A stretch of DNA of 64,000 nucleotides, taken from Variovorax paradoxus. GTDB lineage: Bacteria > Pseudomonadota > Gammaproteobacteria > Burkholderiales > Burkholderiaceae_C. The position numbers were made by a program, and so were the translations under genes. The stretch lies in assembly GCF_018614955.1 (NCBI RefSeq), contig NZ_JAGGNV010000026.1, positions 62,001-126,000 of the forward strand, given 5' to 3'. This document shows positions 3,153 to 60,813 of this stretch, piece by piece; the stretch's first letter is position 1, and every line of letters starts with the position of its first letter. The notes under the pieces are model-generated. The model worked only from the letters and a program-made list of their open reading frames with translations. It was not told where the DNA came from and made no database searches.

Positions 3153-3190
3153 ACATAGTGCGCACGTGTACGGTAATGGAAAACACTTAG
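3153..3190 (+). repeat. 38-bp promoter block, copy 1 (copy 2 at 33792-33829)
   Basis: The block begins ACATAGTGCGC, contains operator copy A, and ends TAATGGAAAACACTTAG. The copy at 33792-33829 matches at 34 of 38 positions, with all four differences in or next to the operator core. Both copies sit in a divergent intergenic region, followed about 105 bp later by a second operator-like site, so the whole promoter layout looks duplicated. Confidence 0.7.
3158..3171. promoter_or_regulatory. Palindromic operator copy A
   Basis: GTGCGC-AC-GTGTAC, one mismatch from the window consensus GTRCRC-NN-GYGTAC. It lies in the divergent region between the alcohol dehydrogenase operon (start 3059) and the ligase operon (start 3334), so it could control both. 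The right arm runs into TACGGT, a possible -10. It is embedded in a 38-bp block (3153-3190) repeated at 33792-33829. Confidence 0.65.
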
Positions 3191-3268
3191 TGCAGCCATC
3201 GTTTAAATAGGGCGAGTGCTCGCCTTTACCGTTGACGGCGACCGTTACCCGTGACTAGCATCCAGGTC

Positions 3269-3282
3269 GTAAGGTAGTGAAT
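3269..3282. promoter_or_regulatory. Weak palindromic operator copy A2
   Basis: GTAAGG-TA-GTGAAT, a degenerate match to the consensus. It is credible mainly because it occupies the same place as copy G2 in the paralogous promoter at 33.9 kb, 111 bp after the first site. It is 52 bp before the ligase start codon. Confidence 0.4.
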
Positions 3283-3333
3283 TAAATAGCAGCGCCCGGC
3301 CGCACGAAGCGGGCCCAATGGAGACAAGAGAGC

Positions 3334-4980
3334 ATGACCTCGAACTCGTACGATCCCGCCGGGCACGCCGCCAAGATGCGCGGCAATAACTGGTGGCCCG
3401 ACGTGACCACCGATGAGTTGATCGCGCAGGCCACCCGGCGCTTTCCCGACAAGGAGGCTCTGGTCGCCTACCGCGCCGACGCGGGCGAGACGGCGGTCAA
3501 GCGGCTGAGCTTCAGCCAGCTGGAAGACCTGGTCAGCCGCGGCGCCGCCGCCCTTCACGCGATGGGCGTGGGCCCGGGCGACGTGGTCTCGGTGCAGGTG
3601 CCCAACCACTGGGAGTTCGTCGTGGCGTCGTTGGCCGTGGGCCGGCTGGGGGCCGTGGTCAACCCGCTCATGCCCATCTTCCGCGAGCGCGAGATGAGCT
3701 ACATGCTGGGCTTTTGCGAAGCCAAGGTGCTGATCGTTCCCAAATCGTTCCGTGGCTTCGACTATGAGGAAATGGCGAAGGCGTTACGGCCGCAGTGTCC
3801 CGGGCTGCAGCACGTGCTGGTGGTGGGCGGCGACGGCGAGAACGGCTTCGAGCGCGCGCTGTTCAGCGGCTCCGGGCGCATCGCGCCGGCGCCCGACGCC
3901 GCATCGGCGCCCAGCCGCGCGGACGAGATGGCGGTGATGATGTTCACGTCGGGCACCACCGGCGAGCCCAAGGGCGTCATGCACAGCTGCAATTCGCTGG
4001 TGGCCTGCGTGCGTGGCCTGGCCAAGCGCTTCGGCCTGAGCGAGAACGACGTGCTGCTGGCCTGCTCGCCGCTGGGCCACATGACGGGCTACGCGGCCGT
4101 AATGTTCCAGGGACTGTGCCTGGGCTGCACGGTCGTGCTGCAGGACGTATGGGACGGCAAGCGCGGCGTGGCCATCATGGCGGCCGAAGGCGTCACGCAC
4201 ACGGCCACCTCCACGCCTTTCCTGGTGGACATCTGCGAAGCCGTGGCAGCCGGCGGTCCCCGGCCGGAGCTGCGCACCTACCTGTGCGGCGGCGCGCCGA
4301 TACCGCCGGTAGTGGTGGAGCGCGCCGCGCGCGAGCTGAACCTGAACGTCTCCAGCCTGTGGGGCATGACCGAATCGCTGGGCGGCACGTTGACCGAGCC
4401 AGGGCGCGCGCACGAGAAGTCCGCCTCCACCGACGGTCGTCCGCTGGAGGGTACCGAGGTGAAGGTCACCGACCTCGACGGCGAGCCGCTGCCCCCGGGC
4501 GAAACCGGACGCCTCATGGTGCGCGGCGCGCAGATGTTCATGGGCTACTACAAGCGCGAAGACCTCGAGCCCTTCGATGCCGAGGGTTGGTTCGACACGG
4601 GCGACCTGGCCTACATGGACGCCGAGGGCTACATCCGCATCAACGGCCGCACCAAGGACGTGCTGATCCGCGGCGGCGAGAACGTGCCGGTCATGGAAGT
4701 CGAGAACCTGCTGCTCAAGCATCCGGCCGTGTCGGGCGCGGCGCTGGTCGGCATGCCGGACCTTCGACTGGGAGAGCGGGGCTGCGCCTTCGTCACCTTG
4801 CGTCCTGGCCAGTGCCTCGATCTGGCCGGCCTGCAGGCCTACATGAACGAGTGCAAGGTCGCCAAGCAGTACTGGCCCGAGCGGCTGGAAGTAGTCGCCG
4901 AGCTGCCCAAGACGCCCAGCGGCAAGATCCAGAAATTCGTCCTGCGCGAAAAGGCCAAGGCCTTCTCGCAAGCGGCGTGA
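3334..4980 (+). CDS. Acyl-CoA ligase, cyclohexanecarboxylate-CoA ligase-like (ANL superfamily)
   Basis: 548 residues of the ANL family. The ATP loop is textbook T-S-G-T-T-G-E-P-K-G near residue 207; W-G-M-T-E-S supplies the A5 motif, Y-M-D...G-R-T-K-D-V the hinge, and P-K-T-P-S-G-K-I-Q-K-F the C-terminal catalytic lysine. Overall style is that of AliA-type cyclohexanecarboxylate ligases (N-N-W-W-P-D near the N-terminus), though substrate assignment is inference. It activates a carboxylic acid to its CoA thioester at the cost of ATP, the entry step to beta-oxidation. A GAGACAAGAGAG stretch precedes the ATG. It is translationally coupled to the following SDR by a 1-nt stop/start overlap. Confidence 0.88.
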   Translation: MTSNSYDPAGHAAKMRGNNWWPDVTTDELIAQATRRFPDKEALVAYRADAGETAVKRLSFSQLEDLVSRGAAALHAMGVGPGDVVSVQVPNHWEFVVASLAVGRLGAVVNPLMPIFREREMSYMLGFCEAKVLIVPKSFRGFDYEEMAKALRPQCPGLQHVLVVGGDGENGFERALFSGSGRIAPAPDAASAPSRADEMAVMMFTSGTTGEPKGVMHSCNSLVACVRGLAKRFGLSENDVLLACSPLGHMTGYAAVMFQGLCLGCTVVLQDVWDGKRGVAIMAAEGVTHTATSTPFLVDICEAVAAGGPRPELRTYLCGGAPIPPVVVERAARELNLNVSSLWGMTESLGGTLTEPGRAHEKSASTDGRPLEGTEVKVTDLDGEPLPPGETGRLMVRGAQMFMGYYKREDLEPFDAEGWFDTGDLAYMDAEGYIRINGRTKDVLIRGGENVPVMEVENLLLKHPAVSGAALVGMPDLRLGERGCAFVTLRPGQCLDLAGLQAYMNECKVAKQYWPERLEVVAELPKTPSGKIQKFVLREKAKAFSQAA

Positions 4981-5747: not shown

Positions 5748-5852
5748 GGGCGAGGTTTGCGGAGGAAGGGACGTTATTCGCTTCACCCCGATCGTCCTGG
5801 GCCCGCCGAGGGCCCGGGCCTGTCGAAAACCCTGATGGTATGATGGCGTAAG

Positions 5853-5866
5853 GTACGGTACCGTAC
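5853..5866. promoter_or_regulatory. Palindromic operator copy B
   Basis: GTACGG-TA-CCGTAC, a perfect dyad, 106 bp upstream of the SDR start at 5972. The right arm continues as TACGAT, resembling a -10 box. It lies in the 224-bp gap after the preceding SDR and so marks a separate operon. Confidence 0.65.
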
Positions 5867-5971
5867 GATCGGACGTGCAGACGAGGAACCGCCATCCACG
5901 GGAGAGCTCTGCTGCCGTGCGGCGCGGCGCCGAAACAAGCAAGCCTTCGACCTCAAGAACCGGGAGATTCC

Positions 5972-6853
5972 ATGTCGGCATACAAATCGGTGTTCAGCCG
6001 CGACCTGTTCGCTGGCCAGACCATCATCGTGACGGGCGCCGGGAGCGGCATCGGGCGCTGCACCGCGCACGAACTGGCCGCCCTGGGCGCGCATGTGGTC
6101 CTGATCGGCCGCAACGCCGAAAAGCTGGAAAACGTGCGGAAGGAAATCACGGATGACGGTGGGAGCGCCAGCGCCAAGCCCTGCGACATCCGAGACGAGG
6201 CGCTGGTGGGTGCGACCATCGACGCGGTGATCGCCGAACGCGGCGGCGTGCATGGCCTGGTCAACAACGCGGGCGGCCAGTACCGCGCAGCACTGAGCAC
6301 GATTTCCACCAAGGGCTTCGAGGCCGTCGTTCGCAACAATCTCACCGGCGGCTTCATCTTCATGCGCGAGGTCTACAACCGCTGGATGGGCGAGCACGGC
6401 GGCGCGATCGTCAACATCATCGCGGACATCTGGCATGGCTGGCCCGACATGGGCCACTCGGGCGCGGCCCGAGGAGGCATGCTCAACCTCACCGAGACGG
6501 CTGCCTGTGAATGGGCCGCGGCGGGCGTGCGCGTGAACACGGTGGCGCCCGGCGGCATCGCCTCGAGCGGCTTCGACGCGTACACGCCAGATGCCAAGCC
6601 GAAGATCCTGGACTTCGTGAACGTCGTGCCCATGAAGCGCTTCGGCACCGAGTCCGAGGTGTCGGCGGCGATCGTGTTCCTTTTGTCTCCGGCGGCGGCG
6701 TACATCACCGGTTCGTGCATCCGCGTCGACGGTGGCACGCCCAACTACCGCAACAACTGGAAGCTGCAGCCCGCGCAACGCAACGAGGCGTTCAACGGGT
6801 TTCACCGGGCCGTCGAGCCGGAACTGCTCAAGGACATGCAACCACCGCGCTGA
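5972..6853 (+). CDS. SDR related to peroxisomal trans-2-enoyl-CoA / 2,4-dienoyl-CoA reductases
   Basis: 293 residues; T-G-A-G-S-G-I-G cofactor loop near 21-28 and N-N-A-G near 93. The classical Y-x3-K is absent: the region reads M-G-H-S-G-A-A-R-G-G-M-L-N-L-T. This H-S-G-A-A-R block is typical of peroxisomal trans-2-enoyl-CoA reductase (PECR) and recalls 2,4-dienoyl-CoA reductases, which use a displaced tyrosine. R-N-A-E after the second strand favours NADPH. Predicted role: reduction of unsaturated acyl-CoA intermediates. A GGGAGATTCC site precedes the ATG. Co-transcribed with the ligase that starts at 6933; the gap of 79 bp has its own GAAGGAG site. Confidence 0.85.
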   Translation: MSAYKSVFSRDLFAGQTIIVTGAGSGIGRCTAHELAALGAHVVLIGRNAEKLENVRKEITDDGGSASAKPCDIRDEALVGATIDAVIAERGGVHGLVNNAGGQYRAALSTISTKGFEAVVRNNLTGGFIFMREVYNRWMGEHGGAIVNIIADIWHGWPDMGHSGAARGGMLNLTETAACEWAAAGVRVNTVAPGGIASSGFDAYTPDAKPKILDFVNVVPMKRFGTESEVSAAIVFLLSPAAAYITGSCIRVDGGTPNYRNNWKLQPAQRNEAFNGFHRAVEPELLKDMQPPR

Positions 6854-14807: not shown

Positions 14808-15839
14808 TCAGCGGCTGGCCGCGCTCAGGTCGGCGCGCAGCGCATTCACCAGCGCCACGGGGTCAGGCACGCCACGCTTGCGAGCCTTCTCGTACGTGGC
14901 CTGCTCGACCGGCAGCGTCTTTTGCTTCATCGCCGCAACGACGGCGGGGCTCAGGCGTTCGACGGTGCCGCCGGCCTTGCGCGTCGCCTCCAGCGCCTCC
15001 TGCTCGGCCTTGTCGTACGCCGTGCCGACGCCCAGCGCCAGCTTCTCGCCGGACACGGACATGATCGCGTCCTGGTCGGCCTTGGACAGCGCCTGCCATT
15101 TGGCCGGATTCATGGCCAGCACGATCACGGTGGCCGAGAAGCCGCCTTCGACGATATGCGCCTTGGGTACCACCGTGGTCAACTTGAAGCTGAGCGAGTC
15201 GGGGGTGGTGAACACCGCGCCGTCCAGAAGGCCGCCGGACACCATCTCGTAGATGTCGGGGGCGGGTTTCACGACCGGCACGCCGCCCAGCAGGCTGATG
15301 CCCTGCGAGACGGTGGGGCTGGGGCTTCGCAGCTTCAGGCCCTGGATGTCGTCGACCGTCTTGATGGCCCTCTTGGCCGTGTAGATGTGCTGCGCCGGGC
15401 CCGTGAACACGCTCAGCGGCTGGATGCCCTTGTACTCGTTGAACTGCGCCAGGTGCTTGGTGAAAAAGCGGTGGGTGGCCGGAGAGCGGATCGACGCCTT
15501 CTCGGCCAGGAACGGCAGTTCCATCAGCTCGGTGATCTCGAACTTGCCGGGGGTATAGGACGGCACGAACAGCGCCACGTCGGCCAGCCCATCGGAGATC
15601 GTGTCGAACTGCCCGGCCACCGTACCGACCACCTTGGGCGCCCACTCGACCTTGACCCGGCCCTGCGTGACCTTGGCCACTTCCTCGGACCACGGCTCCA
15701 TCACCTGCGCTCGCAGCGGGTGGCCCGCCGGCAGCCAGTTGGAATAGCGCAGAACGGTCTGCGCAAAGGCGAGCGGCGACCCTGCGGTCGCGGCAATCAG
15801 CGTTCCGATGGCCAGCGATGCGCGGAAAAAGGTTTTCAT
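14808..15839 (-). CDS. TRAP-type (DctP-family) periplasmic substrate-binding protein
   Basis: 343 residues. A Sec signal peptide ends at about A-F-A|Q-T-V, followed by L-R-Y-S-N-W-L-P, the start of a DctP fold. G-L-K-L-R-S-P near residue 165 and G-G-V-P-V near 183 carry the family ligand-binding arginine and the next strand. AGGAGAT precedes the ATG. No DctQ or DctM membrane subunits are in the window, so it is an orphan binding protein that must share a permease encoded elsewhere. First gene of the minus operon, under operator copy C; a homologue at 53149-54225 is likewise next to a ligase. Confidence 0.85.
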   Translation of the reverse strand: MKTFFRASLAIGTLIAATAGSPLAFAQTVLRYSNWLPAGHPLRAQVMEPWSEEVAKVTQGRVKVEWAPKVVGTVAGQFDTISDGLADVALFVPSYTPGKFEITELMELPFLAEKASIRSPATHRFFTKHLAQFNEYKGIQPLSVFTGPAQHIYTAKRAIKTVDDIQGLKLRSPSPTVSQGISLLGGVPVVKPAPDIYEMVSGGLLDGAVFTTPDSLSFKLTTVVPKAHIVEGGFSATVIVLAMNPAKWQALSKADQDAIMSVSGEKLALGVGTAYDKAEQEALEATRKAGGTVERLSPAVVAAMKQKTLPVEQATYEKARKRGVPDPVALVNALRADLSAASR

Positions 15840-15946
15840 CAGATCTCCTGGGAGTGAAGGAGCCTTGCGGGCAGGGCTCCTGGTGTACGGATGAGTGCTC
15901 GCCGGCCCGACCGGGCAAAGCAGCGTGAATGAATTGTTGCCAGCTA

Positions 15947-15960
15947 GTGCACTAGCGAAC
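15947..15960. promoter_or_regulatory. Palindromic operator copy C
   Basis: GTGCAC-TA-GCGAAC, two differences from the best-matching dyad, 108 bp upstream of the DctP start codon on the minus strand. Confidence 0.6.
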
Positions 15961-16077
15961 AATACGTCGACTCACAACAACTGCGTTCGGGACTAACCCC
16001 TATGGCCGGCAGTGCGCATCCCCTTGCTGTCATGACACGCCGGCGACGTCCCGGGAAAACCCGGATCAAAGCGTACC

Positions 16078-17783: not shown

Positions 17784-17797
17784 GTATGCATGTGTAC
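17784..17797. promoter_or_regulatory. Palindromic operator copy E
   Basis: GTATGC-AT-GTGTAC followed by GAT, so TACGAT forms a -10-like hexamer; 103 bp upstream of the acyl-CoA dehydrogenase start at 17900. Confidence 0.6.
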
Positions 17798-17899
17798 GAT
17801 TATGGGCGCCCGGCCTGCAGCATCGCCGGGTTGCAATTTTCAAGCATCGGCGCACCGCGCAGTCCATCCGCGCGGAGCCACATCGAAAGAGCCTGGATC

Positions 17900-19853: not shown

Positions 19854-19921
19854 GGCTTCGCGCCCCGCCGCCGCCCTGGCTTCGTCCGATCACCGTCTTC
19901 GAGGGACACCGACGCACGATC

Positions 19922-44632: not shown

Positions 44633-44670
44633 GATTGGCGGTACAGCTAGCCAAAACCAGGAGACACACC

Positions 44671-45864: not shown

Positions 45865-45885
45865 CCACCCCAACCGACGCATGCC

Positions 45886-47852: not shown

Positions 47853-48550
47853 TGCTCAAGACCGAAGACCTCAGCGTGAGCTACGGCAACGTCCACGCGC
47901 TGCAGGGCGTGAACCTCGAAGTGAGAGCGAAGGGCGTGCTGCACGGCATCATTGGCCCCAACGGCGCCGGCAAGTCCACGCTCATGGACGCGATCACCGG
48001 CCGACGCAAGCCGACGCGTGGTCGCGTGCTGGTCGATGGCCAGGACATCACGGCGCGCAGCGTGTCGTGGCGTCGCCGTTTCGGCATGTCGCGCTCGTTC
48101 CAGCGCACCAGCATCTTTCCGGGCCTGACGGTGCGCGAGCAGCTGGCGCTGGTCGCCACCGAACTCGGCGAGCCCGACCTCGACGAGATCGTCGATGCGT
48201 TCGAGTTGCGCGCCTCGCTCGATTTGCCCGCCGACAGCATCGCTTATGGCGACCAGCGGCGTGTCGACATCGCGCTGGCCATGATCGGCAAACCAAATCT
48301 GATGCTGCTGGACGAGCCCGCCGCCGGCTTGTCCACCACCGAGACGATTGGCCTGTTCGAGCACCTGGTGCGCCTGGTGCGCCAGCGCGGCGTTACCGCG
48401 CTCGTGGTCGAGCACGACGTCGACGCGGTGTTTCGCTTCTGCGACGAGGTGACGGCGCTGGACCTCGGAAAATTGATCCTGACCGGCAAGCCGGCCGAGG
48501 TGCGCAGCGATGCCCGCGTCGTCACCGCCTACCTGGGAACTGCCGCATGA
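47852..48550 (+). CDS. livG: ABC transporter ATPase LivG
   Basis: 232 residues. Walker A G-P-N-G-A-G-K-S-T near 36, Q-loop S-F-Q-R-T-S-I, signature I-A-Y-G-D-Q-R-R-V-D, Walker B L-M-L-L-D-E-P-A-A-G-L and H-loop V-E-H-D-V. Energises the third importer. ATGA overlap with livF. Confidence 0.91.
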   Translation: MLKTEDLSVSYGNVHALQGVNLEVRAKGVLHGIIGPNGAGKSTLMDAITGRRKPTRGRVLVDGQDITARSVSWRRRFGMSRSFQRTSIFPGLTVREQLALVATELGEPDLDEIVDAFELRASLDLPADSIAYGDQRRVDIALAMIGKPNLMLLDEPAAGLSTTETIGLFEHLVRLVRQRGVTALVVEHDVDAVFRFCDEVTALDLGKLILTGKPAEVRSDARVVTAYLGTAA

Positions 48551-50416: not shown

Positions 50417-50445
50417 TTGACACAGAATGGTCGCGACTATAAAGT
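50417..50445 (+). promoter_or_regulatory. Predicted promoter for the hydratase operon
   Basis: TTGACA at 50417-50422. The -10 is either TATAAA at 50438-50443 (15-bp spacer) or TAAAGT at 50440-50445 (17-bp spacer). Operator copy K begins at the end of the -10, so binding would overlap the start point. Confidence 0.45.
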
Positions 50446-50457
50446 ACTCTAGCGTAC
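50444..50457. promoter_or_regulatory. Palindromic operator copy K
   Basis: GTACTC-TA-GCGTAC, in the 160-bp divergent gap, 93 bp before the hydratase start at 50550 and 55 bp from the minus-strand start at 50389. Confidence 0.68.
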
Positions 50458-50549
50458 TAAGGCGCTAGCATCGACGGCAATGGCCTTTGTGTCAACCGGC
50501 TTTTTCACCGTGGCGGCGAGCGCGCCGCATTCCAAGGAGACCAGGAAAC

Positions 50550-51353
50550 ATGACAACCGAAACACCGGCCCAACCGTCGATCCGCCTGGAGCGCGAGGGC
50601 GCTCTGGGCATCGTCACGCTCTCGCAAGCCGCGCGCGCGAACCCCTTCGACGGCGCCTTCACCCGCGACTTCAAGCGCGTGTTTGCCCAGCTGTGGGACA
50701 TGCCCGACCTGCGCGCCGTGCTGATGAAGGCCGACGGCGCCAACTTCAGCTTTGGCGGCGACCTGAAGTCCTTCGGCCCCGTCCTCGACAAGCTCGGCCC
50801 CCTGGTGCGCGAATGGACCGGGGACCTGCACATGGGCCTGCAGCGCGCCTGGACCTTGCCGGTGCCCATCGTGTGCGCGGTGCAGGGCTTCGCCATGGGC
50901 GGCGGCGTGGCGCTGCTGGCCGGCTGCGATGTGGTGCTGGCCGGCCAATCGGCCAAGTTCGGTTCGGCGTTCGCGCAGCTGGGCTTCAGTTGCGACTCCG
51001 GTTCCAGCGCCGTGCTCACGGCCCGCATGGGCGCTGCACGCGCGCGCCGCTTCGTGCTGCTGGCCGAGGTGCTGGCGGCGCAGGACGCGCTGAACGCGGG
51101 CCTGGTCGATCGCGTGGTTCCCGACGACCAACTGCAGGAGTCCGCCCTGGCGCTGGCCACGCAGCTGGCGAACGGCCCGACCATTGCCTATGGACAGATC
51201 AAGCGGCTCTTCCTGAAGGCCAGCGGCGCCTCCATGACCGACCTGCTCGAGGACGAAGCCATCACGCTGTCGCGCGTGGCCGCCACCGCCGACGCGCAAG
51301 AGGGCATTGCCGCCATGCTGGAAAAGCGCAAGCCAGTGTTCCAGGGGCGTTGA
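50550..51353 (+). CDS. Enoyl-CoA hydratase/isomerase family protein, atypical active site
   Basis: 267 residues; AAGGAGACCAGG precedes the ATG. G-F-A-M-G-G-G-V-A-L-L near 116 forms the oxyanion hole. Both crotonase glutamates are missing: the first region reads F-G-S-A-F-A-Q-L-G-F-S-C-D-S-G-S-S and the second F-V-L-L-A-E-V-L. One Asp follows the usual Pro position, as in PaaG-type isomerases. Likely a double-bond isomerase or another crotonase reaction. Stop is immediately followed by the next hydratase start. Confidence 0.84.
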   Translation: MTTETPAQPSIRLEREGALGIVTLSQAARANPFDGAFTRDFKRVFAQLWDMPDLRAVLMKADGANFSFGGDLKSFGPVLDKLGPLVREWTGDLHMGLQRAWTLPVPIVCAVQGFAMGGGVALLAGCDVVLAGQSAKFGSAFAQLGFSCDSGSSAVLTARMGAARARRFVLLAEVLAAQDALNAGLVDRVVPDDQLQESALALATQLANGPTIAYGQIKRLFLKASGASMTDLLEDEAITLSRVAATADAQEGIAAMLEKRKPVFQGR

Positions 51354-52133
51354 ATGACCGACGCCGCAACGGCTTACGCCAATCTGCGCGTCACGCGCAG
51401 CGACGCAGGCTTCGCCACCATCGTCTTGAACCGACCCGAAAAGCTCAATACCCTGTCCATCGCCCTGCGCCGTGAGCTCGCTGAAGCGGTGGCTGCGCTG
51501 GAGGCCGACCCGGGCGTTCACGTGCTGATCCTCACCGGTGAAGGCCGCGCCTTCACCGCCGGCATGGACCTGGACGAATGGGACGCCGATGGCGGCGTTG
51601 CGGCCCGCGCGTACGAGCTCGACGCGGTCAAGGCGCTGCAGCAGTTCAGCGGCCCGCTGATCGGCGCGATCAACGGCATGGCGATCACCGGTGGCCTCGA
51701 GATCGCGCTTTCCTGCGACCTGCTGCTGGCGTCCAGCGAGGCCCGTTTTGCCGACACCCACGTCAAGGTCGGGCTGCTGCCCGGCTGGGGCGGATCGGCG
51801 CGGCTGCTGCGTCGCGTGGGCATTGCGCGGGCCAAGGAGATTGCGCTGACCGGCGGCTTCTTCAGCGCGGCGGAGGCGCATGCCTGGGGCATGGTCAATC
51901 ACGTCTATGCGCCCGAGCGGCTGCAAGGCGAGGCCGAGGCCCTGGCCCTGCGCATGCTGCAGAACCCGCCCGCGGGGCTGATCGCCTACAAGCGGCTGCT
52001 CGATGCGGAGTCTGGCTGCACGCTGGAAGAGTCGCTGCGCATCGAGCGCGAGGCCTCGGTGGCATCCAACCGCGCCGTGACACGGCAGGAGATCGAGTCG
52101 CGCCTGGCGCGTCTGCGCAGGCAGGGGCGTTGA
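51354..52133 (+). CDS. Enoyl-CoA hydratase/isomerase
   Basis: 259 residues. N-R-P-E-K-L-N-T-L near 24, G-R-A-F-T-A-G-M-D near 62, N-G-M-A-I-T-G-G-L-E near 104 (oxyanion hole). The second catalytic glutamate is present (A-K-E-I-A-L-T-G-G), the first is replaced (F-A-D-T-H-V-K-V-G-L-L-P-G-W-G-G). It may hydrate or isomerise enoyl-CoA together with the preceding paralogue. Starts directly after the upstream stop. Confidence 0.86.
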   Translation: MTDAATAYANLRVTRSDAGFATIVLNRPEKLNTLSIALRRELAEAVAALEADPGVHVLILTGEGRAFTAGMDLDEWDADGGVAARAYELDAVKALQQFSGPLIGAINGMAITGGLEIALSCDLLLASSEARFADTHVKVGLLPGWGGSARLLRRVGIARAKEIALTGGFFSAAEAHAWGMVNHVYAPERLQGEAEALALRMLQNPPAGLIAYKRLLDAESGCTLEESLRIEREASVASNRAVTRQEIESRLARLRRQGR

Positions 52134-54236: not shown

Positions 54237-55793
54237 TCAAATCTTGCGGCTTTGCTGCGCCCAGTGCGGGTCGCGCAGCACGTTCTTTCGTACCTTGCCC
54301 ACGGGCGTGACGGGCAGCGGCTCCGAGCGGAACTCGTAGCTGCGCGGCACCTTGTAGCCGCCGATGTGCTGGCGGCAAAAGGCGGTGAGTTCCTCGGGCG
54401 TGGCGCTCTCGCCCGGCTTGAGGACGACAACGGCGTGCACGGCTTCGCCCCACTCGGCGCTGGGGATGCCGATCACGGCGGCCTCGCCCACGGCGGGGTG
54501 CATGAAGAGCACGCGCTCGACCTCGATGGAATAGACGTTCTCGCCGCCGGTGACCACCATGTCCTTGATGCGGTCGGCCACGTAGAGGAAGCCGTCGTCG
54601 TCGATGGTGCCGGCATCGCCGGTGTACATCCACCCGTCCTTGAGCACGGCGGCGGTGGCGCTTTCGTTGTGGAAGTAGCCGTTCATCAGCGTTTCGCCGC
54701 GCACCACGATTTCGCCCAAGGTGTCGGGCGGGGCCACCGTGCCGTCGGGCAGGCGGACTTCCACCTGCATGCCCGGCGCGGGCTGGCCGGCCGAGCGCAG
54801 GCGCTTCGCCTTCGGGCCCTCGGTGACGTGGTCGCGCCAGCGCAGCATGGTGGCGAAGCCGCCGGTCTCGGTCATGCCGAAGATCTGATAGAAGCGCAGG
54901 CTCGGCAGCTTCTTCATCGCGGTCTTCATCAGCGTCTCGGGCATGGGCGAGCCGCCGTAGACGCAGGTGGCCAGGCTGGACAGGTCGTACTTGTCGAAGT
55001 CGGGGTGGCTGATCAGCATGTTGATCATGGTGGGCACCAGCACCGCGTTGGTGATCTTGTGCTCGGCGATGGTCTGCATCACCAATACCGGGTCGAACTT
55101 GGGCAGCGGCACATGCGTGCCGCCCGCCAGGGTGATGTAGAGCAGGGCGCTGGCGCCCGCGAAATGGAAGTAGCCGGCCACGTACGCGAAGCTCAGGTCC
55201 TCGATGGACGGCAGCATCGCCAGGTAGGTGATCGTGGCCATGAACAGGCCGCGGTGCGACATCATCACGCCCTTGGGATGGGCCGTGGTGCCGCCGGTAT
55301 AGAAGATCACCCAGAGGTCCTCGCCGCCGCGGTTGGAATCCGGCAGGGGTTCGTGCTGCGTCAGCAGCGCCTCGTACGACAGCATGCCCTCGGGCGTGTC
55401 GCCTTCGCCCATGAAGATCAGCGTCTTCAGCCCGGGCAACTGCTTCTGCAAGTCGCGCGCCTGCTCGATGAAGCTCTCGTCGACCAGCAGCACGCTGGCC
55501 TGCGAGTCGGTCAAGGCATAGAGATTCTCGGCCGGCGACCAGCGGATGTTCAACGGCGCGAGCGCCCCGCCGGCCCAGGGCACGGCAAAGAACAGCTCGA
55601 CGTAACGATCGGAATTCATGGACAGCGCCGCCACGAAGGCGCCGTCGGCAATGCCGAAGGAGCGCAGCGCTGCCGCAAGGCGCGGCACGCGCTGGCCGAC
55701 CTCACGCCAGGCGCGGCGCCGTCCGTTGCAGATGGTGGCCGTCTTGTGCGGCGCGCAGGCCACGGCCTGCTTGAGAAAACTCGTGCCCTGCAT
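54237..55793 (-). CDS. Acyl-CoA ligase (ANL superfamily, medium/long-chain type)
   Basis: 518 residues. ATP loop Y-T-G-G-T-T-A-H-P-K-G near 168 (second residue Ser changed to Gly, lysine kept), A5 F-G-M-T-E-T-G-G, A7 T-G-D-A-G-T-I-D, hinge D-R-I-K-D-M-V-V-T-G-G-E-N-V-Y-S and P-V-G-K-V-R-K-N terminal lysine. Paralogue of the ligase at 16179, which is also beside a DctP gene. First gene of its operon, 33 bp downstream of operator copy L, giving a very short leader. Confidence 0.88.
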   Translation of the reverse strand: MQGTSFLKQAVACAPHKTATICNGRRRAWREVGQRVPRLAAALRSFGIADGAFVAALSMNSDRYVELFFAVPWAGGALAPLNIRWSPAENLYALTDSQASVLLVDESFIEQARDLQKQLPGLKTLIFMGEGDTPEGMLSYEALLTQHEPLPDSNRGGEDLWVIFYTGGTTAHPKGVMMSHRGLFMATITYLAMLPSIEDLSFAYVAGYFHFAGASALLYITLAGGTHVPLPKFDPVLVMQTIAEHKITNAVLVPTMINMLISHPDFDKYDLSSLATCVYGGSPMPETLMKTAMKKLPSLRFYQIFGMTETGGFATMLRWRDHVTEGPKAKRLRSAGQPAPGMQVEVRLPDGTVAPPDTLGEIVVRGETLMNGYFHNESATAAVLKDGWMYTGDAGTIDDDGFLYVADRIKDMVVTGGENVYSIEVERVLFMHPAVGEAAVIGIPSAEWGEAVHAVVVLKPGESATPEELTAFCRQHIGGYKVPRSYEFRSEPLPVTPVGKVRKNVLRDPHWAQQSRKI

Positions 55794-55825
55794 CCTGCCG
55801 CCTCGTATGTGTACGGCAGCACATG

Positions 55826-55839
55826 GTACACACGCGTAC
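55826..55839. promoter_or_regulatory. Palindromic operator copy L
   Basis: GTACAC-AC-GCGTAC, a full consensus match, 33 bp upstream of the ligase start at 55793 (minus strand). An extra GTGTAC half-site lies at 55809-55814. Confidence 0.7.
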
Positions 55840-55912
55840 GAAGGCTGGATGGGTATTTACCCGGGTCGCGCCTCGCGGCCGCCCGCGCTCTTCGGAAAGA
55901 AAAGCGCGTGGG

Positions 55913-56902
55913 TCAGCCGACGGTGTGGGACTGCCCGGCCCAGAACTTGTCGCGCAGGACCCGCTTGAGGATCTTTCCCGTGGGATTCATCGGCAGCGCC
56001 GTCTCGAATTCGACGTGCCTGGGAACCTTGTAGCCGGCGATCAGCTCGCGGCAGTGCTCGATGAGTTCTTCCGCGGTGAGCTCGGCGAGCGGCTTTTTGA
56101 CCACCACCGCCGTCACACGTTCGCCCCAGCGCGCATCGGGCGCGGACACGACCGCGCAGGCGGCGACGCCCGGGGGCTTCATGATGGCCTGCTCCACTTC
56201 GGCCGAATAGACGTTCTCGCCGCCGGTGACGATCATGTCCTTCACGCGGTCCACGATGTAGTAGAGGCCGTCCCGGGGATCTCGGAAACCGGCGTCGCCC
56301 GTGCGGTACCAGCCCCGCGACAGGGCCTTGGCGCTCTGCTCGGGCTGGTTGCGGTAGCGCGTGAACAGCGCTGGCGAGCGCACCTGGATCTCCCCGGTCT
56401 GCCCGTCCTCGAGCTCATTGCCGCTTTCGTCGACGATTCGGAAATCGATCAACGGCAGCGGCGTGCCGCAGGAGCGCAGCTTGGACTCGTTCTCCAGGTC
56501 GTGCTGCTCCGGGCGCAGGATGCTCATCGCGCCGCCGCTCTCGGTAGCGCCATAGAACTGCATGAAGTGCGACGGGATCGCATGCATGGCGCGCTTCAGG
56601 AGCGTTGCGCTGATGGGCGATCCCGCGTACATGATGAGCCGCAGCGAACTCAGGTCGGCCGCCTCGAGGCCAGGGTGGTCCAGCATCATCTGGATGACGA
56701 TAGGCGCGACCACGAGGATGGTGGGTCGTGTCTGCGCCACGGGGTCGAGCAAACGCCCGGGTTCCAGGGCCGGCATGACCGACACGGTGCAGCCGTTGTA
56801 CATCGCCTGCACCGGCAGCGCCGTGCCCAGCAGGTGAAAGTTGGGCATGGCCATCATCAGCACGTCGTCTGACTTCCACTGGAAGACCGGTTCGAAGTGC
56901 CG
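55913..56902 (-). pseudogene. Acyl-CoA ligase lacking its N-terminal third
   Basis: The minus frame reads a normal ligase from H-F-E-P-V-F-Q-W (about 56900) down to the stop at 55913, roughly 329 residues: F-Y-G-A-T-E-S-G-G (A5), T-G-D-A-G-F (A7), D-R-V-K-D-M-I-V-T-G-G-E-N-V-Y-S and N-P-T-G-K-I-L-K-R. About 190 residues, including the ATP loop T-S-G-T-T-G, are missing. Upstream of 56902 the frame becomes antisense of a LysR gene, so the open frame that continues there is not ligase. Cannot adenylate; a deletion relic. Confidence 0.8.
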
Positions 56903-56909
56903 GCACAGT

Positions 56910-57518
56910 CGCACGGCGCTGCTGCAGTTGGCGCAGGAAGCGCCGGAGATCCTGGTCACCGTGCACGTCGACACCAGCCGCGCGCTGGTGGAGGGGCTGA
57001 TGAAAGCCCGTTTCGACCTGGTGCTGGCGCGCGTGCGAGACGCGTCGCTGGAGCCCGAACTGAATTTCGAACCCGTCGTGCAAGAGCCGATCTGCGTCGT
57101 GGCGCGCGCGGGCCACCCGCTGGCGCGCAAGCGCAAGCTCATGCTGGCGGACCTGGTGCACCACCCATGGATCCTGCCGCCAGGCGGTGCCGACCTGCGG
57201 GCGCGCATCGACGCGCGTTGCATCCAGCAGGGGCTTCCCCTTCTCACCAGCCTGATCGAAACGCTGTCGTCGCCTGTCATGCTGAGTGTCGTGTGCATGA
57301 GCGACGCATTGGTATTGCTTCCTGAGGATTTCGCGCAGCCTTACTGCGCCAACGGCTGGCTGACCGTGCTGAACATCGACCTGGGCGTGCGCTCCGAGAA
57401 CTTCGGCATCATCACCCGCCGCAACACGGTGGGGTCGCCGCAGCTGCAGCGCGGGTTGGGCGTGTTCCGACGGATGGCCACCGCGATGTACCGGCTGCGA
57501 CCCGGCGCGGCAAGCTGA
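56910..57518 (+). pseudogene. LysR-type regulator lacking its DNA-binding domain
   Basis: From R-T-A-L-L-Q-L at 56910 to the TGA at 57518 the plus frame is a LysR effector domain: P-E-I-L-V-T-V-H-V-D, L-V-E-G-L-M-K-A-R-F-D-L-V-L-A-R-V, then A-R-A-G-H-P-L-A near 70 and H-P-W-I-L-P-P-G. About 200 residues remain; the wHTH (first ~90 residues) is absent. An in-frame ATG at 56841 would add residues that are antisense ligase. It was presumably the divergent regulator of the truncated ligase. Unable to bind DNA. Confidence 0.8.
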
Positions 57519-57579
57519 GCGCTCGCTGCTTCGCCCGCCTGGCTCAGCCCAGCTGAAGCACTACCGACTTGGTCTGCAG

Positions 57580-59022
57580 TTACTCGTGCATGTGCTGCAC
57601 ACCCGACTCGCGCCCGAAGCCGCTCATCTTGTAGCCGCCGAACGGGATGGCCGGGTCCATGACCTGATAGCAGTTGGCCCACACGGTGCCGGTGCGCAGG
57701 CCCTTGGCGACCCGGTGCACCGTGGTCACGTCGCGCGACCATACGCCGCTACCAAGCCCGTACTGCGTGTCGTTGGCGCGGCGCAGCACCTCGTCGAGAT
57801 CGTCGAAGGGCAATGCCGACAGCACCGGTCCGAAGATTTCCTCGCGCGCGATGCGCATGTCGTCGCGCACGCCGGCGAACACCGTAGGCCCCACGAAGTA
57901 GCCGCGCGCCAACGCGCCCGTCTCCAGTCGCGAGCCGCCCGCTAGGGCCTTCGCGCCCTGCTCGTGGCCCAGGCTCAGGTAGGTGGTGACGCGCTGCAAT
58001 TGTTCGGCCGACACCACGGGGCCCAGCTGCGTATGCGGATCGAGCGGATCGCCCACGCGCAGCGTCTTGGCATACAACGCCACCTTCTCCACGAACTCGT
58101 CGTAGATGGCCCGCTGCACGTACAGGCGCGTGCCGGCGCTGCAGATCTGGCCGGAGTTCTGAAACACCGCCATCGCGGCGCCCGGCACGGCGATGTCCAG
58201 GTCGGCGTCGGCGAACACGATGTTCGGCGACTTGCCGCCCAGCTCCATGGACATGCGCTTGAGGTTGCCCGCCGCGGCTCGCACGATCTTCTGACCCACT
58301 TCCGTCGAGCCGGTGAAAGCCACCTTGTCGACGCCCGGATGCGCGGCAAGCGCGCTGCCGGCCTCGGCAAAGCCTGTGACCACGTTGACCACGCCGGGCG
58401 GGATGCCGGCTTCCATGCACAGCTCGGCCAGCCGCAGCGGCGACAGCGGTGCCTGTTCGGCCGGCTTGAGCACCACGGTGCAGCCCGAGGCGAGCACCGG
58501 GCAGATCTTCCAGATGGCCAGGCCGATGGGGCCGTTCCAGGGGTTGATGGCGCCGACCACGCCGACCGGCTCCTTGAGCGTATAGGCGAACACGTCGCCC
58601 GGCGCGGAGTTGGGGATGGTGTCGCCCTGCATCGAGGTGGCCAGGCCCGCGTAGTAGCGCAGCAGGCCGACCGCGCGGCGTCGTCCGAGGATGGTGCGCG
58701 CGATGGGCCCGCCCATGTCCAGCGTGTCGAGCAGCGCCAGCTCGTCGTAGTGCTTTTCCACCAGGTCCGCGAGCTCGAGCATGACGTGCTGGCGCTCGAA
58801 AGGCTTGAAGCGGCTCCAGGGCCCCGACTCGAAGGCGGCGCGCGCCGCAGCCACGGCGCGGTCGACGTCGGCGGCGCCGCCTTCGGCGACCTGCGCCAGC
58901 CGCTCGCCGGTCGCCGGGTTGATGGTGTCGAACAGCTTGCCGCTTTCGGCCGGCACGCTGCGGCCGTCGATGAACAGCAGCTTGGGTCGACCGTCGAGGA
59001 AGGAGGGCAGGGCAGTGATCAT
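57580..59022 (-). CDS. Aldehyde dehydrogenase, prematurely stopped 12 residues from the usual end
   Basis: 480 residues. Catalytic Glu in M-E-L-G-G-K-S-P near 258 and Cys in N-S-G-Q-I-C-S-A-G near 291; cofactor motif F-T-G-S-T-E-V-G near 234; I-N-P-W-N-G-P near 158. Oxidises an aldehyde to the acid with NAD(P). A TAA at 57580-57582 ends it after M-H-E. The same frame continues L-Q-T-K-S-V-V-L-Q-L-G to a TGA at 57544, the family's normal terminus. The lost strand takes part in oligomer contacts, so stability may be affected. ATGA-coupled to the GMC oxidoreductase upstream, together an alcohol-to-acid route. Confidence 0.87.
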   Translation of the reverse strand: MITALPSFLDGRPKLLFIDGRSVPAESGKLFDTINPATGERLAQVAEGGAADVDRAVAAARAAFESGPWSRFKPFERQHVMLELADLVEKHYDELALLDTLDMGGPIARTILGRRRAVGLLRYYAGLATSMQGDTIPNSAPGDVFAYTLKEPVGVVGAINPWNGPIGLAIWKICPVLASGCTVVLKPAEQAPLSPLRLAELCMEAGIPPGVVNVVTGFAEAGSALAAHPGVDKVAFTGSTEVGQKIVRAAAGNLKRMSMELGGKSPNIVFADADLDIAVPGAAMAVFQNSGQICSAGTRLYVQRAIYDEFVEKVALYAKTLRVGDPLDPHTQLGPVVSAEQLQRVTTYLSLGHEQGAKALAGGSRLETGALARGYFVGPTVFAGVRDDMRIAREEIFGPVLSALPFDDLDEVLRRANDTQYGLGSGVWSRDVTTVHRVAKGLRTGTVWANCYQVMDPAIPFGGYKMSGFGRESGVQHMHE

Positions 59023-60707
59023 GGCGTGGACAGGGTGAAGGGTGCGGGAGCGAATGCGGCGCCCAGTTCGGCGCGCGGCGACGAGCTGCGGGGGCGGCGC
59101 ATGAATTCGGCCGCCCGCTCGCCGACCATCATGGACGGGGCGGCGGTGTTGCCGCCAATGATGTTGGGCATGATGGACGCGTCGGCCACACGCAGGCCCT
59201 CGATGCCGTGCACGCGCAATTGCGCGTCCACCACGGACGCCGGGTCGCTGGCCGGGCCCATTCGGCAGGTGCCCACGGGGTGGTAGGTGGTGGCGGCCGT
59301 CGTGCGGATGTACTTTTCCAGCGCTGCGTCATCGTCTGCCGCCGCGCCGGGCAAAAGCTCCGCGCCGGCATAACGCGCCAGCCCCGGCATTGCCATTATT
59401 CGGCGTGCTTCGCGCAGCCCGTGCAGCATCGCGTCGACGTCGCGACGGTCTTCCAGGAAGCGTGGATGCATCACGGGGCGGTCGGCAGGGTTGCTGGAGC
59501 GCAGCTCCAGGCTGCCGCGGGTGGCCGGCCGCAGCACTGCCACATGGCACACGAAGCCGTGGCGTCGCGGCAGCGTCCGAGCGCTTTCTTTCATGCCCAC
59601 CATGAAGGTGAACTGCAGGTCGGGGCGGTCCAGCGCGGGGTTGCTGCGCATGAAGCCTCCCGCCTCCGCGGCGTTGGACGCCAGCATGCCGCGCCGCCCG
59701 AAGGCGTAGCGCCAGGGCGCCGCCGTGTTTCGGGCAAGGGCCCGCCAGCTCATTGCATACGACTCGCCGCCCGGGTTCGCGATGGCGACGGACGCAGTGG
59801 GATGATCCTGCAGGTTGGCGCCAACGCCGGGCAGCGCATGTGCGACGCGGACCCCATGCCGCTCGAGGACCGGCGCGGCGCCGATGCCCGAGAGCATCAG
59901 CAGCTGCGGGCTGTTGATCGTGCCGGCCGACAGCACGACCTCGACCGCGGCGCTGAGTTCGATGCGCTCGCCGCGGTGCCGCACCGACACGCCGGTCGCG
60001 CGCGCGCCTCTCAGCACGACGCGCTCGACCAACGTGTCGGCGAAGACGGTGAGGTTGGGACGCGACAGCGCCGGGTGCAGGAACGCGCGCGAACTCGACA
60101 GCCGCACGCCGTGGCGCTGGTTCAGCTCGAACAAGCCGAAGCCGTCCTGCTGCTCGCCGTTGAAATCGTCGTTGAGCGGGTAGCCGGCCTCTCGCGCCGC
60201 CTGCGCGAAGCCCAGCGCGAGCGCGTGCGGGTCTCGAAGCCGCTGCACGTCGAGCTCGCCACCCGTGCCATGAAAGGCGCTGGTGCCGAGAGCCCGGTTC
60301 TCGTGGCGCGTGAAGGCCGGCAGCACGTCGGCATACGACCAGCCTTCGTTGCCCAGCGCCGCCCAGTCGTCGTAGTCGAGCCGGTGGCCGCGGATATAGA
60401 CGGTGCCGTTGAGCGAGGTGCAGCCGCCGAAGAGCCGCCCTCGCGGGCAGCCGATGACGCGGCCGTTGACGCCGGCGCCTCCGGTGAACTCGTGCATCCA
60501 GTTGTAGCGCGAATGGGGGAGCAGAAAGATGTTGCCGATGGGCAGCAGCGTCTTCAAGTTGACGGGGAAGCGCCGGTCCGATGGGCCCGCTTCCACCAGC
60601 GCCACCCGCACGGCGGGATCGGCGGACAGGCGGTTGGCGAGCACGCAGCCGGCGGCGCCCGCGCCCACGACGATGTAGTCGAAGGCCCGGGCCGGGGAGG
60701 TGTACAC
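59019..60707 (-). CDS. GMC-family FAD alcohol dehydrogenase (choline-dehydrogenase-like)
   Basis: 562 residues. FAD loop V-V-G-A-G-A-A-G-C near 14, G-G-C-T-S-L-N-G near 94 (GMC signature 1), G-T-I-N-S-P-Q-L-L near 265 (signature 2) and C-terminal T-Y-H-P-V-G-T-C with the catalytic His followed by G-G-N-T-A-A-P-S-M. Oxidises a primary alcohol to the aldehyde handed to the co-transcribed aldehyde dehydrogenase. Style is BetA/AlkJ-like but the substrate is not readable. Divergent from the BKACE gene across operator copy M. Confidence 0.87.
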   Translation of the reverse strand: MYTSPARAFDYIVVGAGAAGCVLANRLSADPAVRVALVEAGPSDRRFPVNLKTLLPIGNIFLLPHSRYNWMHEFTGGAGVNGRVIGCPRGRLFGGCTSLNGTVYIRGHRLDYDDWAALGNEGWSYADVLPAFTRHENRALGTSAFHGTGGELDVQRLRDPHALALGFAQAAREAGYPLNDDFNGEQQDGFGLFELNQRHGVRLSSSRAFLHPALSRPNLTVFADTLVERVVLRGARATGVSVRHRGERIELSAAVEVVLSAGTINSPQLLMLSGIGAAPVLERHGVRVAHALPGVGANLQDHPTASVAIANPGGESYAMSWRALARNTAAPWRYAFGRRGMLASNAAEAGGFMRSNPALDRPDLQFTFMVGMKESARTLPRRHGFVCHVAVLRPATRGSLELRSSNPADRPVMHPRFLEDRRDVDAMLHGLREARRIMAMPGLARYAGAELLPGAAADDDAALEKYIRTTAATTYHPVGTCRMGPASDPASVVDAQLRVHGIEGLRVADASIMPNIIGGNTAAPSMMVGERAAEFMRRPRSSSPRAELGAAFAPAPFTLSTP

Positions 60708-60799
60708 GGCGGCGATGTTTGTCTCCTGCTTATTCCTATGAGCATGGTTTCCACGAGTCCCCGGCTGGCGCCGACGGTAGCATAATGCGCTGGAACATA

Positions 60800-60813
60800 G
60801 TGCGCAAGCGTAC
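60800..60813. promoter_or_regulatory. Palindromic operator copy M
   Basis: GTGCGC-AA-GCGTAC within ACATAGTGCGC..., the same left flank as copies A and G. It lies in the 203-bp divergent gap, 93 bp from the GMC start and 98 bp from the BKACE start. Confidence 0.66.

What the first reader, a model, noticed from the sequence alone, without database searches (positions are those of the whole stretch)
3158..60813. A window-wide regulon defined by 15 copies of one palindrome, GTRCRC-NN-GYGTAC
Reading the intergenic gaps side by side shows the same 14-bp dyad at 3158, 3269 (weak), 5853, 15947, 16078, 17784, 33679, 33797, 33899, 35666, 41108, 44619, 50444, 55826 and 60800. Nearly every operon of the acyl-CoA/transport cluster has one copy 24-111 bp before its first start codon; divergent gaps have one to three. 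Several right arms extend to TACGRT, overlapping a -10-like hexamer, which suggests a dimeric repressor of the TetR/FadR kind. It would unite at least a dozen operons over 58 kb. No intact regulator is encoded in the window. I know of no described regulator with this exact site.
Basis: partly seen in the sequence, partly recalled or inferred. Interest (0 to 1): 0.87.

Follow-up and report, generated by a model that had tools for sequence, protein, structure and literature searches.

The report
MarR-type regulon of alicyclic-acid catabolism
Fourteen near-identical 20-bp DNA palindromes in front of the genes of one bacterial catabolic cluster are real and are shared by related bacteria, and they most likely bind one small MarR-type switch protein whose gene lies just outside the window.

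Summary
Of the 15 sites, 14 outrank every non-site position of the window under leave-one-out scoring; 3269 does not. The motif is a 20-bp palindrome, ATnGTACrCTAGyGTACnAT. Four more copies lie on the same contig (C45), left of the window. The regulator is probably not TetR/FadR: a MarR-family gene at C45:59096-59596, 2.4 kb left of the window, lies between two strong sites and has a weaker copy at its own start. Twenty-eight loci with orthologous MarR genes (69-83% identity, mostly beta-proteobacteria) hold 57 sites of 16 bits or more, against 2 in an equal length around more distant MarR genes. Orthologues of site-bearing genes have a site in 55 of 95 cases, those of site-less genes in 6 of 158. 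In a MarR-blind scan of 299 family genomes, the only one passing E 0.1 carries this MarR, with the site just behind it. Target genes resemble cyclohexanecarboxylate-CoA ligase/dehydrogenase, BadH/BadI and other acyl-CoA enzymes and transporters. Best reading: a MarR repressor, perhaps released by an alicyclic acyl-CoA, controls a cluster of about 85 kb. Its operator differs from BadR's. Eight literature searches listed no description. Binding, sign and ligand are not shown.

The parts
3155..3174 (.). operator site in the divergent gap 2031-3059(-) / 3334-4980(+)
   Evidence: 23.0 bits; leave-one-out 21.8, no better non-site position; site before 1 of 3 and 0 of 1 orthologues
5850..5869 (.). 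operator site before SDR 5972-6853(+)
   Evidence: 22.7 bits; before 0 of 7 orthologues
15944..15963 (.). operator site at the 5' end of the DctP gene 14808-15962(-)
   Evidence: 20.8 bits
16075..16094 (.). operator site before acyl-CoA ligase 16179-17732(+)
   Evidence: 26.1 bits
17781..17800 (.). operator site before the AliB-like acyl-CoA dehydrogenase (ORF from 17786; the family model begins about 44 residues in, so the real start is probably further right)
   Evidence: 25.1 bits; NCBIfam match from residue 45
33676..33695 (.). operator site, first of three in the divergent gap between the Liv operon (-) and SDR/EamA (+)
   Evidence: 16.7 bits
33794..33813 (.). operator site, second of three in that gap
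   Evidence: 24.8 bits
33896..33915 (.). operator site, third of three in that gap
   Evidence: 21.3 bits; SDR orthologue without site, 0 of 1
35663..35682 (.). operator site before ACAD 35742-37010(+); lies between TTGACA and TACGGT at 17-bp spacing
   Evidence: 25.7 bits; promoter-like spacing; before 1 of 2 orthologues
41105..41124 (.). operator site before ACAD 41145-42296(+)
   Evidence: 26.8 bits; before 3 of 6 orthologues
44616..44635 (.). operator site before Liv binding protein 44635-45864(+)
   Evidence: 25.0 bits; orthologue in G115 also has a site, L089:18816
50441..50460 (.). operator site in the divergent gap 49280-50389(-) / enoyl-CoA hydratases 50487-52133(+)
   Evidence: 26.0 bits; before 2 of 3 and 2 of 2 orthologues
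55823..55842 (.). operator site before acyl-CoA ligase 54237-55793(-)
   Evidence: 24.5 bits
60797..60816 (.). operator site in the divergent gap GMC oxidoreductase (-) / BKACE (+)
   Evidence: 26.6 bits; before 0 of 1 and 1 of 11 orthologues
   Evidence: 7.1 bits; two other window positions score as well or better
1110..3059 (-). MaoC-type hydratase and zinc-type alcohol dehydrogenase
   Evidence: Pfam
3334..4980 (+). acyl-CoA ligase like cyclohexanecarboxylate-CoA ligase
   Evidence: TIGR03208 659.6 bits, below its cut-off 792.3
5972..6853 (+). short-chain dehydrogenase
   Evidence: Pfam
14808..15962 (-). TRAP-type DctP binding protein
   Evidence: Pfam
16179..17732 (+). AMP-forming acyl-CoA ligase
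   Evidence: Pfam
17786..19039 (+). cyclohexanecarboxyl-CoA dehydrogenase (AliB) type
   Evidence: TIGR03207 577.6 bits, above its cut-off 575.35
19065..24937 (+). enoyl-CoA hydratase and Liv-type ABC transporter genes (part of the stretch)
   Evidence: Pfam
28927..33677 (-). Liv-type ABC transporter genes
   Evidence: Pfam
33939..35635 (+). SDR and EamA transporter
   Evidence: Pfam
35742..38071 (+). acyl-CoA dehydrogenase and APH-type phosphotransferase
   Evidence: Pfam
41145..43967 (+). acyl-CoA dehydrogenase, histidine phosphatase, APH-type phosphotransferase
   Evidence: Pfam
44635..48550 (+). Liv-type ABC transporter genes
   Evidence: Pfam
50487..52133 (+). two enoyl-CoA hydratase family proteins
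   Evidence: Pfam
54237..55793 (-). AMP-forming acyl-CoA ligase
   Evidence: Pfam
55913..60707 (-). AMP ligase, aldehyde dehydrogenase, GMC oxidoreductase
   Evidence: Pfam
60911..61837 (+). beta-keto acid cleavage enzyme (BKACE)
   Evidence: Pfam

Best explanation
The palindromes are operators of one MarR-family regulator encoded at G000:C45:59096-59596 (+), 2.4 kb left of the window. Its dimer binds the 20-bp palindrome ATnGTACrCTAGyGTACnAT in 15 gaps of C45 between 38 and 123 kb, and a weaker copy at its own start. It most likely represses roughly twenty transcription units that activate alicyclic (cyclohexanecarboxylate-like) carboxylic acids to CoA esters, oxidise and cleave the ring, and import the substrate. 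A CoA-thioester intermediate probably releases it, as with BadR and CouR. Shown by sequence: the sites, their clustering on C45, their partial conservation, and co-occurrence with this MarR gene. Inferred: binding, repression, operon limits, ligand and substrate.
For: MarR identity: Pfam MarR_2 62.8 bits (cut-off 27) and MarR 51.4 (cut-off 24.6). A model of the orthologue in L024 (pLDDT 90, 19 sequences from loci) matches DNA-bound SlyA best in PDB. Own site: 12.3 bits at the start of marR; strong sites 58048 (25.8, before the SDR upstream of marR) and 59673 (19.0, before the ligase downstream) lie on both sides. An element TAGAATGTACGCATCATTACAGTAA before marR, typed from these loci, is kept with 6 mismatches or fewer in 17 of 28 related loci, and with 3 in C45; 5 of 560 random segments of the same loci reach that, some perhaps drawn over the element itself. 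Orthologues: 28 loci at 69-83% identity hold 71 sites of 12 bits or more and 57 of 16 or more in 484 kb (26 of 28 loci have one of 16 or more); 32 loci of more distant MarR genes, not matched for composition, hold 8 and 2 in 487 kb; matrices with permuted columns give about 4 of 12 bits or more over the same 28 loci (sum of the means). Promoters: orthologues of site-bearing C45 genes have a site in 55 of 95 cases, of site-less genes in 6 of 158 (Fisher p 7e-23; related loci, not independent). Genome scans: own genome at E<=10, 11 places, all on C45, two outside the training window; 299 family genomes at E<=0.1, only G115, whose MarR match ends 58 bp before the site; at E<=3, 24 of 32 MarR-bearing entries (22 of 30 distinct genomes) against 3 of 32 genomes without it. 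Two rival regulators do not follow the sites. Pathway names.
Against: No binding or expression data. The marR site is degenerate. The 28 loci were found through the MarR, so their enrichment is partly by selection; one search is the MarR-blind test, and there the own genome itself did not pass E 0.1 (its best is 0.308). Conservation is uneven: genes left of the window 45 of 58, window genes only 10 of 37 (against 6 of 158, p 7e-5), with 0 of 7 for the SDR at 5972 and 1 of 11 for the BKACE. 8 of 32 MarR-bearing entries gave no hit at E<=3. The 52-57% relatives in G018 have no site of 12 bits in the two stretches read. Strong lone sites occur without the MarR: 22.0 bits in G007 and 23.5 in G028, with no cluster genes within 5 kb. 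The profile search is insensitive: 5 of the 14 training sites were not listed at E<=10, so sites elsewhere in the own genome are not excluded; one of 18.3 bits exists at C23:143785. The 32 control genomes were picked by me, mostly large ones, not drawn at random. A MalT/LuxR-type regulator is encoded at C45:32810-35554. Ring-pathway genes other than AliB score below their family cut-offs, so the exact substrate is open.
Confidence: 0.86

Rival explanations
1. The sites belong to another regulator of the cluster, the MalT/LuxR-type protein at C45:32810-35554; the MarR gene is only a neighbour.
For: A large LuxR-type regulator (GerE domain, 51.5 bits) is encoded left of the site-bearing region; a LuxR-type gene also lies in the Castellaniella monoterpene island (PMC4109377, section 5).
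Against: A relative at E<=1e-30 is found in 12 of 33 genomes incl. its own, at 40% identity or more in only two others (G308, G320); site-rich genomes such as G300, G115 and G325 have none.
Confidence: 0.05
2. A TetR- or FadR-type repressor owns the sites.
For: 43 TetR_N matches exist in the genome; one lies on C45 at 131097-131852. TetR operators are also palindromes (recalled).
Against: That TetR has a relative at E<=1e-20 in 17 of 33 genomes incl. its own, but at 56% identity or more in only 4 of 32 others, and its nearest site of 12 bits or more is 8.3 kb away. The other TetR genes and any GntR/FadR genes were not tested.
Confidence: 0.06
3. The MarR is an activator, or a repressor with activating roles at some promoters.
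For: Sites lie at varied distances from starts, and most lack a good -35 box at 16-18 bp from the arm, so steric repression is not evident for most promoters.
Against: Site 35666 lies between TTGACA and TACGGT, and the marR site directly follows a TAGAAT box, as expected of a repressor; most characterised MarR proteins repress (PMC4737184, passages).
Confidence: 0.12
4. The palindromes are not a regulatory regulon but a repeated element or chance in GC-rich DNA.
For: The loose 14-bp consensus is not above chance in the window.
Against: Leave-one-out ranking and shuffles, position in gaps, conservation before part of the orthologous genes.
Confidence: 0.01

Closest known systems
BadR of Aromatoleum sp. 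CIB / Rhodopseudomonas palustris (MarR-type repressor of bad-ali, cyclohexanecarboxylate; PMC9795900, abstract and passages)
   Same: MarR family; represses CoA ligase, AliB-, BadH- and BadI-type genes; released by CoA-thioester intermediates.
   Different: Operator CAAN4TTG, found in none of the 18 sites of 16 bits or more and within 150 bp of only one (33679). The MarR-like ORF in two Aromatoleum aliB loci, which hold CAATACATTG, is only 29-30% identical to ours; these two Aromatoleum genomes hold both genes.
CouR of Rhodococcus jostii RHA1 (MarR-type; PMC4737184, passages)
   Same: MarR-type repressor of a CoA-dependent catabolic regulon with one inverted repeat at several promoters; p-coumaroyl-CoA releases it.
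   Different: Operator cATTGA-N5-TCAATg; phenylpropanoid substrate; chains match ours only weakly (E 3.6e-7 for 5cyv, which names as CouR; 8.5e-6 for 6c28, labelled CouR).
Monoterpene island of Castellaniella defragrans 65Phen (PMC4109377, section 5 and passages)
   Same: 70-kb island with BadH/BadI-like ring-cleavage genes, thiolases, acyl-CoA dehydrogenases, (R)-enoyl-CoA hydratase, ETF genes and three MarR genes.
   Different: In the parts read, no operator is described for its MarR genes. Its sequence was not reached here, so identity of the modules is untested.
IadR / MarR_73 of Variovorax (auxin degradation; PMC9613470, passages)
   Same: MarR repressor of a catabolic cluster in a genus that also holds our MarR.
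   Different: Binds free indole-acetate; its PDB chain 7kfo matches ours only at E 4.4e-5.
SlyA / RovA
   Same: Closest solved structures by sequence (4aih, E 2.3e-15) and fold (3q5f).
   Different: Enterobacterial regulators with other roles (recalled); NCBIfam SlyA model 67.4 bits, below its cut-off 120.

Membership tests
MarR family | winged-helix MarR domain over curated cut-off | tested here: met
   PF12802 62.8 bits (cut-off 27), PF01047 51.4 (cut-off 24.6)
MarR family | MarR fold (helical dimer region plus wHTH with wing) | tested here: met
   Orthologue model (L024) pLDDT 90; the best PDB matches listed are MarR proteins. The C45 protein itself was not modelled
MarR family | palindromic operator, one half-site per protomer | tested here: inconclusive
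   The associated motif is a 20-bp palindrome (57 related sites, centre TA in 48 of 57), but binding is untested
MarR family | site in own promoter (autoregulation; frequent, not obligatory) | tested here: inconclusive
   Degenerate site 12.3 bits; conserved element in 17 of 28 loci; binding untested
MarR family | homodimer, ligand-responsive DNA binding | not testable with these tools
   needs protein
BadR (bad-ali repressor) | operator CAAN4TTG | tested here: not met
   0 of 18 sites hold it; one copy within 150 bp of a site; operator from PMC9795900
BadR (bad-ali repressor) | orthology to BadR | tested here: not met
   29-30% identity over 123-129 residues to the MarR-like ORF in Aromatoleum aliB loci L095, L096; that these are BadR is inferred from the neighbouring aliB and CAATACATTG
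BadR (bad-ali repressor) | controls aliA/aliB/badH/badI-type genes | tested here: inconclusive
   Site-bearing units include an AliB-type gene over cut-off and ligase-, BadH- and BadI-type genes below cut-off; control is not shown
TetR/FadR regulator | TetR or GntR/FadR gene co-distributed with the sites | tested here: inconclusive
   The C45 TetR at 131097 is not (4 of 32 other genomes at 56% or more); the other TetR genes and GntR genes were not tested
IadR auxin regulator | close relation to MarR_73 | tested here: not met
   7kfo E 4.4e-5

The most novel reading that the evidence does not exclude
A previously undescribed MarR repressor class, with its own operator ATnGTACrCTAGyGTACnAT, acts as the single master switch of an accessory island of about 85 kb and roughly twenty transcription units for alicyclic or terpenoid acids in beta-proteobacteria, large for a MarR regulon. 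It senses an alicyclic acyl-CoA, and its operator can be used to delimit such islands in unannotated genomes.
Probability: 0.5. Interest if true: 0.62.

Novelty: new member of a known kind. Interest (0 to 1): 0.52.

Why it matters
It gives a regulator-operator pair that can be tested with one gel shift, links roughly twenty uncharacterised transcription units into one pathway, and offers a DNA tag for finding related alicyclic or terpenoid acid islands. It also suggests that different MarR lineages with different operators (BadR and this one) control BadH/BadI-type ring cleavage, with genes for both in the same organism (two Aromatoleum genomes). As a kind of system, a MarR repressor of a catabolic cluster, it is familiar.

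Tried and rejected
TetR owner on C45: disfavoured on distribution. LuxR/MalT-type owner: disfavoured on distribution. BadR orthology: rejected on operator and identity. Auxin regulator: only weak similarity. Site 3269: rejected. Promoter geometry: no general -35/-10 frame around the sites; only 35666 is perfect. Loose consensus with 2 mismatches: not above chance. Genome-wide consensus with 1 mismatch: 84 forward matches against 138 for the reversed control, so uninformative. Some matches off C45 were read in 8 stretches of seven contigs (L014-L021; chosen by me from the list): 3 of 8 hold a position of 11 bits or more (12.1, 12.3 and 18.3); L014 holds an end of an ETF gene, L015 and L021 distant homologues of single cluster genes, the other five none. 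G007 and G028, without the MarR, have single sites of 22.0 and 23.5 bits without cluster genes within 5 kb; the third such hit (G122) was not read. Shared tail AATGGAAAACACTTA after sites 3158 and 33797: found nowhere else on C45 or in the 31 loci searched; unexplained. Substrate: monoterpenoid versus naphthenic-type acid could not be decided; the Castellaniella sequence was not reached. The statement that the site is not in print rests on the listings (open-licence PMC papers only) and on passages of six papers (PMC9795900, PMC4109377, PMC9613470, PMC5343134, PMC4737184, PMC5487221); the primary R. palustris BadR paper was not read, only as quoted in PMC9795900.

Full report
The check. Scored with a 20-bp matrix, leaving each site out in turn, 14 of 15 beat every non-site position of the 64-kb window; 3269 does not. 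The full contig C45 (214,038 bases; the window is C45:62001-126000) was scanned after fetching its remaining stretches. It holds 18 positions of 16 bits or more and 20 of 12 or more (14 of them the training sites), against means of 0.22 and 1.13 in 60 shuffles. The strict forms are the informative ones: 4 of 4 places of GTACRCNNGYGTAC and 7 of 8 places of GTRCRCNNGYGTAC lie on C45.

A sequence profile made from the 14 window sites on both strands found 11 places in the own genome at E<=10, all on C45, two of them outside the training window. The search is insensitive: 5 of the 14 training sites are missing from its list, and its first look scored 150 of 1249 candidates. One stray site of 18.3 bits lies at C23:143785, in a gap before an ORF that looks to me like a fatty acid desaturase (my reading of the translation, not a search). 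From the shuffle rate about seven positions of 16 bits or more would be expected by chance in 7 Mb, so this one needs no explanation.

The regulator. Left of the window the sites go on: 38603, 48470, 58048 and 59673. Between 58048 and 59673 lies a 166-residue MarR-family gene, C45:59096-59596, whose start carries a degenerate copy (AATGTAAGCATGAGTACAGT, 12.3 bits). Upstream of its orthologues the stretch TAGAATGTACGCATCATTACAGTAA is kept with 6 mismatches or fewer in 17 of 28 loci examined (sequences). A model of the orthologue in L024 has mean pLDDT 90, and its best PDB match is SlyA bound to DNA. The stretch DLGKVAxGGLIDRLEK, which holds the presumed recognition helix, is nearly unchanged in the 19 homologues aligned.

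Conservation. One scan of a collection of 84,980 species genomes, by exact peptide patterns, gave 61 loci, of which 28 (L022-L049) encode the MarR at 69-83% identity. By their titles they are mostly beta-proteobacteria (Variovorax, Xenophilus, Rubrivivax, Rhodoferax, Paraburkholderia, Aromatoleum, MAGs), with a Labilithrix and a Hyphomicrobiaceae MAG among them. With the matrix from the window alone, 28 of 28 loci hold a site of 12 bits or more (1-5 each, 71 in all; column-permuted matrices give about 4 in all), and 26 of 28 one of 16 or more, together 57 in 484 kb. The 32 further loci L051-L082, with more distant MarR genes and of other composition, hold 2 in 487 kb. L050 (55% identity, Hyphomicrobiales) still has a 19.0-bit site before its own MarR gene.

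Sites sit before orthologous genes in 55 of 95 cases for site-bearing C45 genes and 6 of 158 for site-less genes (the loci are related, so the p value 7e-23 is nominal). The strength is uneven. The core left of the window is best kept: 18 of 19 for the HMG-CoA-synthase-like/DUF35 gene, 10 of 18 for the SDR, 9 of 13 for the ligase, 4 of 4 and 3 of 3 for the MaoC/ADH pair; in all 45 of 58. Window genes give 10 of 37 (p 7e-5 against 6 of 158), with 0 of 7 for the SDR at 5972 and 1 of 11 for the BKACE at 60911. So the core is ancient and the window's part looks more recently or variably recruited. In G115 the window sites 41108 and 44619 have counterparts before the orthologous genes (L089:15288 and 18816), and C45:48470 has one at L090:6788.

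A test not seeded with the MarR: in 299 family genomes only G115 has a profile hit at E<=0.1, 58 bp behind the end of its MarR match; the own genome did not reach that threshold (best E 0.308). The MarR itself (E<=1e-30) is found in only 4 of 299 genomes: G000, G104, G115 and, as two 52-57% relatives, G018. At E<=3, 24 of 32 MarR-bearing entries (two are duplicates; 22 of 30 distinct genomes) have hits, against 3 of 32 genomes without it, which I picked mostly for size. Two of those three were read and are lone strong sites (22.0 and 23.5 bits) without cluster genes. The three sampled genomes of the window's own genus lack the MarR, so the cluster looks accessory. The G018 relatives have no site of 12 bits in the two stretches read, so the operator may change as the protein diverges.

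Rival owners. The MalT/LuxR-type gene C45:32810-35554 has a relative in 12 of 33 genomes but a close one (40% or more) in two others only. The C45 TetR has a relative in 17 of 33, a close one (56% or more) in 4 of 32 others. Neither follows the sites.

What it controls. Eleven gaps of the window and four to its left carry strong sites, giving roughly twenty transcription units by gene direction (operon limits are inferred). The products are CoA ligases, acyl-CoA dehydrogenases, enoyl-CoA hydratases, SDRs, a BKACE, aldehyde and GMC dehydrogenases, APH-type kinases beside acyl-CoA dehydrogenases, and Liv and TRAP transporters. The AliB-type cyclohexanecarboxyl-CoA dehydrogenase passes its NCBIfam cut-off (577.6 against 575.35). 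CHC-CoA ligase-, BadI- and BadH-type models are the best matches of their proteins but below cut-off (691.2 and 659.6 of 792.3; 416.2 of 467.6; 324 of 431.2). The substrate is therefore probably an alicyclic carboxylic acid, perhaps larger than cyclohexanecarboxylate. The Castellaniella monoterpene island has a similar gene list, including three MarR genes (PMC4109377, section 5), which makes terpenoid acids a fair guess.

How it works. By analogy with BadR, released by CHC-CoA or a later CoA intermediate (PMC9795900, abstract and passages), and CouR, released by p-coumaroyl-CoA (PMC4737184, passages), I expect a repressor released by an alicyclic acyl-CoA. The placement at 35666 between TTGACA and TACGGT (17 bp) and directly behind a TAGAAT box at marR fits repression, but most sites show no clear promoter frame.

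Novelty. BadR's operator is CAAN4TTG, which is in 0 of 18 sites, and the MarR-like gene in two Aromatoleum aliB loci is 29-30% identical to ours, so this is a different MarR lineage for a similar task. The listings of eight literature searches show nothing with this site; most subscription papers are not covered. I file it as a new member of a known kind, with an undescribed operator and a large local regulon.

Noticed in passing
window 3155-3189 and 33794-33828: These two operator sites share an identical 15-base tail AATGGAAAACACTTA, found at no other place on C45 or in the 31 related loci searched with up to 2 mismatches. Possibly a recent promoter duplication or a second element.
   Followed up: partly
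window 8001-12000: Lower G+C (0.632) around an AAA_15-type ATPase ORF 8926-9996(-) in the middle of the cluster; looks like an insertion.
   Followed up: no
C45:32810-35554 (L006:12810-15554, -), left of the window: 914-residue MalT/LuxR-type regulator beside an AidB-like acyl-CoA dehydrogenase and a CoA ligase; possible second regulator of the wider cluster.
   Followed up: partly
window 10789-14755, 35742-38071 and 41145-43967: Acyl-CoA dehydrogenases lie near or beside APH-type phosphotransferases three times, recalling the ACAD10/11-like phosphorylation route for hydroxyacyl-CoA (recalled, not tested).
   Followed up: no
L091 (G018:C2): A related module (thiolase 66%, HMG-CoA-synthase-like/DUF35 46%, MaoC 65%, MarR 58%) without the palindrome at 12 bits or more: operator change within one MarR lineage.
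   Followed up: no
L019:5003-5022 (C23:143785): Single 18.3-bit site outside the cluster, in a gap before an ORF that looks like a fatty acid desaturase, next to what looks like a Crp/Fnr-like ORF (names from reading the translations).
   Followed up: partly
L093 (G007) and L094 (G028), near position 5000: Strong lone palindromes (22.0 and 23.5 bits) in genomes without this MarR and without cluster genes in the 10 kb read; owner unknown.
   Followed up: partly
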